Positions 31,247 through 35,952 of a stretch of 64,000 nt of DNA are shown in pieces (positions within the stretch are counted from its first letter, which is position 1; each line of letters begins with the position of its first letter). The notes below the pieces were generated by a model. That model did not search any database. It was not told where the DNA came from and was given only the letters and a program-made list of their open reading frames with translations. The translations under genes and the position numbers were made by a program. The DNA is taken from assembly GCF_020622355.1 (NCBI RefSeq), contig NZ_WHVL01000004.1, forward strand, positions 310,001-374,000, read 5' to 3'. Source of the stretch: Vreelandella malpeensis. Its GTDB lineage: Bacteria; Pseudomonadota; Gammaproteobacteria; Pseudomonadales; Halomonadaceae.

Positions 31247-32158
31247 ATGATCAGACAACGTACACTACAAAATGTCATTCGCGCTACCGGAGTGGGTCTG
31301 CATTCCGGTAAAAAAGTCCATTTGGCTTTGCGTCCGGCACCCGCAGACACAGGGATAGTGTTTGTCAGAACCGATCTGGATCCCGTGGTACACGTGCCTG
31401 CCCGGGCCGAGCTGGTCGAAGACACCAAGCTTTGCACCGCGCTCTCCTTCGAAGGGGTCAAGGTCGCGACCGTCGAACACTTGATGTCCGCCTTTGCCGG
31501 GCTCGGTATCGACAACGCCTATGTCGACGTGAGCGCAGCAGAAGTACCGATCATGGACGGCAGCGCCAGTCCCTTCGTCTTTCTGATTCAGTCGGCGGGC
31601 ATCCACGAGCAGGACGCACCGAAGAAGTTCATCCGTATCAAGCAGCGAATCGCCGTGACCGACGGTGACAAGGAGGCGGTTTTCTTGCCTCACCAAGGCT
31701 TCAAGGTATCGTTTTCCATCGATTTCGATCACCCGGTGTTCGAACAGCAGAACCAGAACGCGCTGATCGACTTCTCGACGACGTCCTTCGTCAAGGAGGT
31801 ATCGCGAGCTCGTACCTTCGGCTTCATGCGCGATCTCGAGTTTTTGCGCTCGAACAATCTTGCGCTCGGCGGCAGCTTAGACAATGCCATCGTCGTTGAC
31901 GACTACCGCATCGTGAACGAGGGCGGGCTTCGCTACGAGGACGAGTTCGTCAAGCACAAAGTGCTGGATGCGATCGGAGATCTCTACCAGCTCGGGTTCA
32001 GCCTGATCGGCGAATTCCGTGGCGTGAAGTCCGGCCATGCCCTGAACAACCAGCTGTGCCGCGAGCTTCTGGCCCAGCCCGAGGCGTATGAGATCGTGAC
32101 CTTCGAAGGCGAGAAGGCGGTAGCGCCCATCTCCTACGCTGCACCGGCCATGGCCTGA
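31247..32158 (+). CDS. lpxC: UDP-3-O-acyl-N-acetylglucosamine deacetylase
   Basis: A 303-residue zinc amidase, the committed step of lipid A synthesis. Zinc ligands are H78 (TVEHLMSAF), H237 and D241 ([12 protein letters not shown]); H264 (KSGHALNN) is the catalytic base. The ATG at 31247 gives [21 protein letters not shown], the canonical N-terminus; an upstream in-frame ATG at 31208 would add a non-conserved tail. Last gene of the division/cell-wall cluster and convergent with dciA. Confidence 0.98.
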
Positions 32159-32216
32159 GTTCTAAAGACGTGATTTTGCAAGGCCGCGGTTGAAATGAGT
32201 TGTTTACGCCCCATCT

Positions 32217-32243
32217 ATGAAGCACCGCCTGGCGGTGCTTCAT
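32217..32243. terminator. Bidirectional terminator-like hairpin between lpxC and dciA
   Basis: Perfect 13-base arms ATGAAGCACCGCC / GGCGGTGCTTCAT about a single central T, overlapping the dciA stop codon. No T-run. Confidence 0.6.
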
Positions 32244-32716
32244 GCGTTTGGGGGCGGCCCTTTCTTGTCGGCGTGAGAGGCGAGGCGTTCCAGCGCACGT
32301 TTCAGGCGTGGATCGTCGGTGTCGTCGGCGCATTGAGCGATGGTCTCGCCGGCATCGGCAGATAGCGAGCGGTGGTAGCGTTCGGGGGCTTTGACCGGAC
32401 GCACCGGGCGTACCTTGAAGTGAAAACCGGTCACCGCCTCGAAGCCGGGCAGTTGATGCAAGAGTTCGAGCAGTCGGCGCTGCTCGAAGCGCAGCCAGGC
32501 AAGCCACGTCGCCTGTCCGCTGATCACCGTCAGGCGCGCATTGCTGAATCCGCCCACGTAAATGTGTGGGCGCATCTCTTCAGGCAGGTGAGCGCGCAGA
32601 TGACACTGGGCCTGGTCGATCAAGCGCGACTGGCGCAGAAGGTTGCTCACCTCGGTAGAGCTTGCGAGCACCGACTTGATGGGCTGTGCGCGAGAACGCT
32701 TAACCTTTATACTCAT
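32240..32716 (-). CDS. dciA: DciA family (DUF721) protein, probable DnaB helicase loader
   Basis: A 158-residue DUF721 protein. The N-terminal KH-like half has SSTEVSNLLRQSRLIDQAQCHL, RLTVISGQATWLAWLRFEQRRLLELL and the predicted nucleic-acid surface; the C-terminal tail is polar and disordered. DciA is the ancestral replicative-helicase operator in bacteria lacking DnaC. The ATG at 32716 gives MSIKVKRSRAQPIKSVL, as expected; a longer in-frame start at 32800 is less likely. Placed between lpxC and secA as in Pseudomonas (PA4405), divergent from the small secA-linked gene. Confidence 0.82.
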   Translation of the reverse strand: MSIKVKRSRAQPIKSVLASSTEVSNLLRQSRLIDQAQCHLRAHLPEEMRPHIYVGGFSNARLTVISGQATWLAWLRFEQRRLLELLHQLPGFEAVTGFHFKVRPVRPVKAPERYHRSLSADAGETIAQCADDTDDPRLKRALERLASHADKKGPPPNA

Positions 32717-32805
32717 ACGCTTAATTCCAGAGTGCCGATTCAGTACGCAAGCACCGGCTTGATGTAATGTCGAAAGCCTAACACGCCAGGGAGCCGCCAC
32801 ACAGC

Positions 32806-33192
32806 ATGTCGTTGACGCCCACGCTCGTTACCCCGCCTTGCCCTCGGCGCGCGCGCCGCAGCGGCCTGGCGCGTTGGTGGCTGGCGGGACTGCTGGTCGG
32901 CTGTCTGCTACCGGCAAGCCTTGCGACCGCCGACGCCAGCCGCGTAAGCGAGCGCAGTGTCGCCATCTGTCTGTGGGTGCCGGCGATGCTGCGTGCGCAG
33001 TCACGGCGTCTTGCCAGCGAGCAGCGCTCGCGTCGAGCGGCCGGACGCAAGAAGGCACTCGGCGCTTGTCTGTCGCGCCTTCTCCTTGCCCAGTTCACCG
33101 GCCAGCCGATGGTCGCCGCGCGGGATGTCTTCACCCGACGCGGCCCGCCCCGCCCACTGCCCTTGAAATATCCTCGCCGCTTTATTCAATAG
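32806..33192 (+). CDS. Small exported protein upstream of secA, candidate SecM-like arrest peptide
   Basis: A 128-residue protein with no resemblance to a known enzyme. Residues 13-24 are strongly basic, 25-43 hydrophobic (WWLAGLLVGCLLPASLATA), and ATADA offers a signal-peptidase site, so it should enter the Sec pathway. The remainder is Arg-rich. Residues 112-115 are Arg-Gly-Pro-Pro (codons 33139-33150), 13 residues before the end. RAPP-type motifs arrest ribosomes in several known Sec/YidC-monitoring leaders, and SecM itself lies just upstream of secA. The stop is 39 bases before secA. Gene reality is likely from its position; the arrest function is inference from signal peptide, motif and context. 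Confidence 0.65.
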   Translation: MSLTPTLVTPPCPRRARRSGLARWWLAGLLVGCLLPASLATADASRVSERSVAICLWVPAMLRAQSRRLASEQRSRRAAGRKKALGACLSRLLLAQFTGQPMVAARDVFTRRGPPRPLPLKYPRRFIQ

Positions 33193-33212
33193 GGCGCCCA
33201 CCGGGTGCGACC
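33111..33212 (+). promoter_or_regulatory. Possible mRNA structure controlling secA translation
   Basis: Three nested complementary pairs flank the RGPP codons: GGTCG 33111-33115 with CGACC 33208-33212; CACCCG 33132-33137 with CGGGTG 33202-33207; CGCCC 33151-33155 with GGGCG 33192-33196. The fold would end immediately before the weak secA initiation region. Found by eye, no energy calculation. Confidence 0.35.
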
Positions 33213-33231
33213 GAAAAGATTTGGAACGTTC

Positions 33232-35952
<2,721 letters not shown>

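What the first reader, a model, noticed from the sequence alone, without database searches (positions are those of the whole stretch)
32806..33192. Candidate SecM-like arrest peptide upstream of secA with an RGPP motif
A 128-residue ORF directly before secA has a basic N-region, a hydrophobic core and an AxA-type cleavage site, and ends with Arg-Gly-Pro-Pro 13 residues from its C-terminus. E. coli SecM sits in the same position and stalls at a Pro-containing motif (ending in RAGP) unless its nascent chain is pulled by the Sec machinery. RAPP-like arrest motifs occur in other Sec/YidC monitors. Apart from signal peptide, position and motif it shows no resemblance to E. coli SecM (no F-x4-W-I-x4-GIRAGP pattern). 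The Arg-rich mature part is also unlike an enzyme.
Basis: partly seen in the sequence, partly recalled or inferred. Interest (0 to 1): 0.82.

Follow-up and report, generated by a model that had tools for sequence, protein, structure and literature searches.

The report
Ribosome-stalling leader peptide before secA
A 128-residue protein encoded just in front of the secretion-motor gene secA in Halomonas-type bacteria carries an Arg-Gly-Pro-Pro motif that almost every relative examined keeps, and it is predicted to jam its own ribosome there until the secretion machinery pulls it free, which would raise SecA production when secretion is slow; it very likely belongs to a class of arrest peptides already described in 2024.

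Summary
ORF 32806-33192 (+) encodes 128 residues with an export-signal-like N-terminus and RGPP at 112-115, 39 nt before secA (ATG 33232). It is a real gene: 257 of 275 genomes of the window's family match it, secA follows in all 100 loci read, and 118 of 119 proteins taken without regard to the motif keep RGPP/RAPP (the exception reads a different C-terminus). Signal and arrest segments differ mainly by synonymous changes, while the linker drifts. It is not SecM by sequence. It fits the published criteria for RAPP-like Sec monitors and is very likely the group "uA_RQH_Pseudomonadales", whose R109GPP member stalled E. coli and B. subtilis ribosomes in vitro; the main text names no Halomonas species. 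New here: one origin, on one branch of a SecA tree, where relatives carry an M23 peptidase gene; an invariant Cys in a Leu-Val-Gly/Ser-Cys signal; and a second conserved segment (49-70). How a stall would open secA was not resolved: RNA tests were inconclusive. Ordinary in kind, with a clean evolutionary story.

The parts
32806..33192 (+). uORF of secA: 128-aa predicted arrest peptide, with stop TAG
   Evidence: homologues
32788..32793 (+). AGGGAG, possible Shine-Dalgarno of the uORF, 12 nt before its ATG (inferred)
   Evidence: read
32875..32913 (+). hydrophobic signal core W24-L35 and P36; L30, C33, L34 and P36 identical in all aligned sequences
   Evidence: 215 of 215 (locus rows were picked partly by signal patterns); motif-blind set 119 of 119 L-V-[GST]-C-L-L-P
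32902..32904 (+). codon of invariant Cys33, in a lipobox-like L-V-G/S-C (117 of 119; Thr before Cys in 2)
32923..32931 (+). A40-T41-A42, signal-peptidase-I-type cleavage site (inferred)
   Evidence: 108 of 119 proteins have a compatible -3/-1 pair within 4-10 residues after P36, a loose rule
32950..33015 (+). second conserved segment, residues 49-70 (around P59, R63, A64, S66, A70)
33016..33114 (+). variable linker, residues 71-103, often Arg-rich
33115..33150 (+). arrest segment, residues 104-115 (A-A-x-D-V-[LF]-[TS]-x-R-G-P-P)
33139..33150 (+). RGPP motif; predicted P-site codon P114 (33145-33147), A-site codon P115 (33148-33150)
   Evidence: motif; stall register inferred from RQH toeprints in PMC10987492 section 9
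33193..33231 (+). uORF-secA spacer, 39 nt
33220..33226 (+). TTTGGAA, weak Shine-Dalgarno-like site of secA (GGA 6 nt before ATG; inferred)
33232..35952 (+). secA (SecA_DEAD, P-loop_SecA, SecA_SW, SEC-C)
32240..32716 (-). dciA, divergent neighbour; on the opposite strand upstream in 80 of 80 named loci

Best explanation
This is a leader gene for secA whose product is predicted to be an export-monitoring arrest peptide: the ribosome would likely stall with Pro114 in the P-site and Pro115 in the A-site of the RGPP motif, and the stall would likely be relieved when the Sec machinery pulls on the emerging signal-bearing chain. Shown here: the gene, its place before secA, and protein-level conservation of the signal core and the arrest segment, with a less strict conserved segment at 49-70. 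From papers on the class: RQH members stall with the third motif residue in the P-site, and RAPP blocks peptide bond formation to the A-site proline. Inferred: when export is slow the stall persists and secA translation rises, as with SecM. Not shown: how the stalled ribosome exposes the secA start site.
For: Conservation by part: R112, P114 and P115 invariant in 59 aligned proteins (chosen by me from the 120 listed), G113 at least 90%; 118 of 119 motif-blind proteins R[AG]PP (117 RGPP, 1 RAPP; the best 120 of 177 hits less one partial, the window's own included). Codon test on 118 distinct sequences, 4000 random pairs: arrest segment 44% synonymous versus 28% amino-acid differences, signal 48% versus 14%, middle segment 26% versus 53%, linker 10% versus 84%. 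Synteny: secA follows in 100 of 100 loci read (110 held, 10 not read there; some are the same species twice), divergent dciA in 80 of 80. P36 lies 74-81 residues before the predicted P-site proline in the 119 proteins measured; the published median from signal to arrest site for short SecM homologues is 71 (measured differently). The motif lies 1-16 residues from the C-terminus. Published: uA_RQH_Pseudomonadales with R109GPP stalled E. coli and B. subtilis ribosomes, fraction arrested over 0.9; P-site at the third residue in all RQH members toeprinted; RAPP mechanism (abstract); for an RGPP peptide before secDF2, P127A lowered the reporter about 5.6-fold; RAPP and RGPP arrest is refractory to EF-P (abstract).
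Against: No experiment on this protein. Predicted opening of the secA ribosome-binding site by a stall is weak in the window (0.44 to 0.45; 0.35 to 0.36-0.45) and family-wide hardly above synonymous-codon controls (0.42 to 0.57 real, 0.46 to 0.55 control, 118 sequences); the E. coli secM control was also weak (0.25 to 0.35), so the test lacks power. Most E. coli and B. subtilis proteins with RAPP-like motifs tested in print did not stall ribosomes, so the motif alone is not proof.
Confidence: 0.84

Rival explanations
1. A small secreted or lipid-anchored protein with its own job outside the cytoplasm, for which RGPP is a structural or binding motif and secA a mere neighbour.
For: The signal core is unusually conserved, with Cys in L-V-[GST]-C in 119 of 119; the mature part is Arg-rich and could bind something acidic.
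Against: Residues 71-103 drift in length and sequence; no Pfam family for P0001 and only weak scattered hits in 59 members (best TauE, 6 members, E 0.0081; acr3, 1 member, E 0.0031) or in solved structures (best E 0.66); the tail after RGPP is variable and 1-16 residues long; secA follows in 100 of 100 loci read.
Confidence: 0.07
2. An arrest peptide that stalls constitutively and works mainly by translational coupling or mRNA protection, not by sensing Sec activity.
For: No clear ribosome-binding-site switch was found in the window; in one relative (G009, L156) the uORF overlaps the secA start by ATGA, the shape of direct coupling.
Against: The signal core is the most conserved part, and a signal would be needless without export sensing; a second conserved segment lies 45-66 residues before P115, where it would be outside the tunnel (tunnel length recalled), and PMC10987492 notes regulatory elements in the spacers of SecM and VemP.
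Confidence: 0.09
3. A true SecM that has diverged beyond recognition, sharing descent with the enterobacterial gene.
For: Same place before secA, similar signal look, short-SecM-like spacing.
Against: None of 59 members matches SecM or SecM_small at E <= 1 while E. coli SecM matches SecM at 4.2e-58; hhalign 0.1%; BLASTP E 34. Of 390 order genomes searched, the 18 with a match are all in family f1, and relatives carry an M23 peptidase at this place, which speaks for a local origin.
Confidence: 0.04

Closest known systems
uA_RQH_Pseudomonadales and the RQH family of RAPP-like arrest peptides (Fujiwara et al. 2024, PMC10987492)
   Same: uORF of secA, small, signal-bearing, C-terminal RGPP, from a subset of GTDB Pseudomonadales; Arg at 109 in the tested member, and 5 of the 120 proteins held here have the motif's Arg at 109 (4 RGPP, 1 RAPP).
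   Different: The main text has no word beginning 'Halomon' and supplementary files could not be opened, so identity with the tested peptide is inferred. The paper reports no overall similarity among RQH members; here is one coherent homologous family with shared signal and middle segment.
E. coli SecM (PF06558) and SecM_small (PF10818)
   Same: Encoded before secA, N-terminal export signal, Pro-containing stall motif near the C-terminus.
   Different: No profile match; RGPP instead of F-x4-WI-x4-GIRAGP; SecM stalls with Gly165 in the P-site, here Pro114 is predicted.
ApdA / ApdP
   Same: R-[AG]-P-P core; predicted block of peptide bond formation to the A-site proline (abstract).
   Different: They precede secDF2 and were not compared by sequence here; the five residues before RAPP, which affect species specificity in ApdA/ApdP, are here D-V-[LF]-[TS]-x.
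VemP
   Same: Sec-monitoring substrate with an export signal.
   Different: Regulates secD2/secF2 in Vibrio and does not use a RAPP-like core (recalled); not compared by sequence here.

Membership tests
RQH (RAPP-like) Sec-monitor arrest peptides, group uA_RQH_Pseudomonadales | small unannotated uORF, same strand, directly before secA | tested here: met
RQH (RAPP-like) Sec-monitor arrest peptides, group uA_RQH_Pseudomonadales | N-terminal localisation signal | tested here: met
   rule-based reading only (basic N-region, 12-residue core, compatible -3/-1 site in 108 of 119); no SignalP available
RQH (RAPP-like) Sec-monitor arrest peptides, group uA_RQH_Pseudomonadales | C-terminal RAPP-like motif shared by uORFs of the same order | tested here: met
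   118 of 119 R[AG]PP; 1-16 residues from the end
RQH (RAPP-like) Sec-monitor arrest peptides, group uA_RQH_Pseudomonadales | belongs to GTDB r202 order Pseudomonadales | not testable with these tools
   recalled: GTDB places Halomonadaceae there; NCBI lists Oceanospirillales
RQH (RAPP-like) Sec-monitor arrest peptides, group uA_RQH_Pseudomonadales | ribosome stalls with the third motif residue in the P-site | not testable with these tools
   shown for class members in print, not for this protein
RQH (RAPP-like) Sec-monitor arrest peptides, group uA_RQH_Pseudomonadales | stall controls the downstream gene | tested here: inconclusive
   RNA accessibility and coevolution tests
SecM (PF06558 / PF10818) | match to the Pfam SecM or SecM_small profile | tested here: not met
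   0 of 59 members at E <= 1; E. coli SecM matches SecM
SecM (PF06558 / PF10818) | arrest motif F-x4-W-I-x4-G-I-R-A-G-P | tested here: not met
   sequence
SecM (PF06558 / PF10818) | encoded before secA with an export signal | tested here: met
   (signal by rule only)
Lipoprotein precursor (lipobox) | [LVI]-[ASTVI]-[GAS]-C in the first 40 residues (pattern recalled) | tested here: met
   L-V-[GS]-C in 117 of 119, L-V-T-C in 2; Cys33 in the window
Lipoprotein precursor (lipobox) | long uncharged stretch before the Cys and a hydrophilic start after it (recalled rules, e.g. PROSITE PS51257) | tested here: not met
   Arg23 lies 10 residues before Cys33, one too near for PS51257 as recalled, and Cys is followed by hydrophobic L-L-P

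The most novel reading that the evidence does not exclude
A Sec-monitor arrest peptide born once, at the base of the Halomonas group, at the very place before secA where its relatives keep an M23 peptidase gene, and then fixed: an origin of an arrest peptide that can be pinned to one branch. Its invariant Leu-Val-Gly/Ser-Cys signal would make it a lipoprotein-type monitor that senses the lipoprotein branch of export (Lgt/LspA) and answers through SecA, and the codons of the arrest motif double as the RNA strand that masks the secA start site.
Probability: 0.13. Interest if true: 0.68.

Novelty: new member of a known kind. Interest (0 to 1): 0.42.

Why it matters
It gives the RAPP-like arrest peptides, reported so far as lacking overall likeness among members, one deep homologous family with a clear origin. 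Its near-universal presence in the family (257 of 275 genomes) and single branch make it a natural test of how an arrest peptide arises, what besides RGPP must be kept (signal core, segment 49-70, D-V before the motif) and what may drift. If confirmed, it gives a SecA-control handle in Halomonas-type halophiles.

Tried and rejected
Descent from the M23 peptidase: its N-terminus in the 14 relatives printed shows no likeness to the uORF by eye; no alignment was run. Fate of the old gene: against three secA-side M23 proteins (L168, L181, L203) the window genome's four M23 genes reach 46% identity over 104 residues at the best catalytic-region match (genes), so it is unsettled.

SecM membership: rejected by profile.

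RNA switch: (a) accessibility of the secA Shine-Dalgarno with and without upstream RNA, against 60 synonymous recodings each: small, inconclusive (118 of 121 distinct sequences scored; mean rank 0.41, about 0.5 expected). (b) E. coli secM-secA as control: also small (0.25 to 0.35), so the method is weak. (c) Complementarity of matched versus mismatched loci over 35 clusters and 70 window pairs: strongest for uORF nt -3..+21 (from the P-site codon) with secA nt -32..-8 (-2.35 kcal, p 0.001 by sign flips, uncorrected), but control targets inside secA reach -1.5, and against within-locus shuffles the same pair of windows gives only -0.99 (p 0.07) while others do better; only suggestive (first look). 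(d) Rfam: no match at E <= 1 in 32600-33400. (e) Promoter and terminator scan of 32150-33300: none.

In 58 segments around the secA start of the window's genus-like group a hairpin GGGC/GCTC is 89% paired, second of 1146 four-pair helices tried; RNAalifold on all 58 gave no structure, on 50 left after I dropped 8 a weak one (-2.7), so it is a lead only.

Motif counts exclude the 164 loci, which were chosen by R[AG]PP. Those 164 hold 121 distinct stretches; the codon test used 118 distinct coding sequences from them, so its arrest-segment figure leans towards conservation at the four motif residues.

Genomes without the uORF: 18 of 275. secA was sought in 17 of them (G197 left out by me) and found in 15; the two without, G261 and G275, are 80% and 66% complete. 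An M23 gene lies before secA in all 15: 14 by their letters, four of the 15 (L168, L172, L175, L181) by Pfam profile. Of 21 other families, one genome each, 17 show M23 before secA by letters, five of those (L195, L199, L202, L203, L214) checked by profile; one is cut by a contig end and three have other neighbours. Motif-like frames flagged near secA in five (L194, L195, L201, L202, L208) were judged chance by eye.

Full report
WHAT IS THERE. The window holds, on the + strand, an ORF of 128 codons at 32806-33192, then secA, most likely from ATG 33232 (SecA domains). On the - strand upstream lies dciA (PF05258), likely start 32716. The protein has a basic N-region, a hydrophobic core W24-L35, P36, an A-T-A site at 40-42, an Arg-rich body and R112-G-P-P115 with 13 residues after it.

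IT IS A REAL CONSERVED GENE. With a profile of 59 of them, 257 of 275 genomes of the window's family match. In a sample of 390 genomes of the order, 18 match at E <= 1e-5, all in the window's family. In the 100 loci that the script read, secA follows (110 were held, 10 were not read there; the window's own copy and some species held twice are among the 100). dciA lies upstream on the opposite strand in 80 of 80 named loci, within 400 nt in 79.

WHAT IS KEPT AND WHAT DRIFTS. In 59 aligned proteins W24, W25, L26-V31 and C33-P36 of the signal, P59, R63, D107, R112, P114 and P115 are invariant (G32 is not) and G113 is at least 90%. In 119 full-length proteins taken without using the motif (the best 120 of 177 less one partial; the window's own included), 117 have RGPP and one RAPP; the exception, P0034, reads a different C-terminus, as after a frameshift. 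RAPP also stands in L103, L147 and the four genomes of genus g27 that I looked at (L157-L160). Among 118 distinct coding sequences, random pairs differ synonymously at 44% and in amino acid at 28% of codons of the arrest segment; for the signal 48% and 14%, the middle segment 26% and 53%, the linker 10% and 84% (loci chosen by R[AG]PP, so the motif itself is fixed by choice there; relatedness not corrected). The constraint on signal and arrest segment is thus on the protein. P36 lies 74-81 residues before the predicted P-site proline in the 119 proteins measured.

HOW IT LIKELY WORKS. Papers seen: PMC10987492 (abstract, passages, sections 7, 9, 12, 14, 25), PMC12992588 (abstract, passages, section 13), PMC10951233 (abstract, section 8); others only as search listings. 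[quoted passage not shown] Here that means P114 (33145-33147) in the P-site and P115 in the A-site. By analogy with SecM, pulling by active Sec machinery would end the stall, so slow export would lengthen it and raise SecA. The conserved segment 49-70 lies 45-66 residues before P115, outside the tunnel at the stall (tunnel length recalled); the discussion of PMC10987492 notes regulatory elements in the spacers of SecM and VemP. That segment 49-70 has such a role is inference.

WHAT I COULD NOT SHOW. How a stalled ribosome opens secA is open. Shine-Dalgarno accessibility rose from 0.42 to 0.57 on average over 118 sequences, against 0.46 to 0.55 in synonymous recodings; in the window it is 0.44 versus 0.45, or 0.35 versus 0.36-0.45 with other limits. 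The proven E. coli case gives only 0.25 to 0.35 by the same method, so failure here means little. A coevolution scan over 35 clusters points to stall-site nucleotides -3..+21 pairing with secA -32..-8 (-2.35 kcal, p 0.001 uncorrected for 70 windows), but control windows inside secA reach -1.5 kcal, and the second control, within-locus shuffles, does not bear it out (-0.99, p 0.07). Suggestive, no more.

ORIGIN. Of the 18 family genomes without the uORF, 17 were searched for secA and 15 yielded it. In all 15 an M23 peptidase gene stands before secA: 14 read by letters, four of the 15 confirmed by Pfam profile. Of 21 other families of the order (one genome each), 17 show the same M23 arrangement by letters (five confirmed), and none a convincing RAPP-like signal uORF. 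On a tree of 71 SecA N-terminal segments (35 uORF loci that I chose to span genera, plus 15 and 21 others) the uORF bearers form one side of one branch, support 100/99, and the nearest rows outside are M23 bearers. One gain at the base of the Halomonas group, at the place of the M23 gene, is the simplest reading; by eye the uORF shows no likeness to the M23 N-terminus.

THE SIGNAL. L-V-[GST]-C-L-L-P is present in 119 of 119 (G before Cys in 83, S in 34, T in 2), a lipobox-like string with an invariant Cys. Against a plain lipoprotein: Arg23 is close, hydrophobic L-L-P follows the Cys, and positions 40 and 42 mostly suit signal peptidase I (108 of 119 have a compatible site under a loose rule). 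I favour signal peptidase I (about 0.7) and leave the Cys unexplained. PMC10987492 does not use the word lipoprotein in its main text.

MEMBERSHIP AND NOVELTY. By the published criteria it is an RQH-type Sec-monitor candidate, and very likely one of uA_RQH_Pseudomonadales, of which the R109GPP peptide stalled both ribosomes tested. GTDB's placing of Halomonadaceae in Pseudomonadales is recalled; NCBI has Oceanospirillales. None of the 21 other families sampled in the order (one genome each) showed such a uORF, which supports the identification. No paper in the held library has both "Halomonas" and "arrest peptide", none has Halomonas, secA and translation arrest, and the uA_RQH name occurs in one paper only; most subscription papers, and bioRxiv preprints, are not in that library. 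It is not SecM.

VERDICT. Interest is moderate; the single origin and the hyperconserved signal are the parts worth following.

Noticed in passing
window 32902-32904; proteins P0001-P0120: Cys33 inside the signal core is invariant in a lipobox-like L-V-G/S-C-L-L-P; its role is unexplained.
   Followed up: partly
58 nt around the secA start (-52..+6) in L001-L079, L118, L123, L125 (58 distinct): A GGGC/GCTC hairpin sits just upstream of the secA Shine-Dalgarno in the window's genus-like group (89% of cells paired), and C[AG]TG is complementary to the CATG at the secA start (88%).
   Followed up: partly
L156 (G009): The uORF runs on past RGPP and overlaps the secA start by ATGA, a coupled variant.
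   Followed up: no
L157-L160 (genus g27) and L161: These members have spacers of 170-207 nt to secA; L157-L160 have RAPP in place of RGPP.
   Followed up: no
L065; L145 and L166 (G265); P0034: Copies whose reading frame breaks between signal and motif; G265 is 86% complete with 6% contamination, so sequencing error is possible.
   Followed up: no
L167-L181: An M23 peptidase gene occupies the place before secA in relatives that lack the uORF.
   Followed up: partly
window 17638 (-): A 105-codon open frame (stop to stop) with RAPP 19 residues from its end; may be a chance frame.
   Followed up: no
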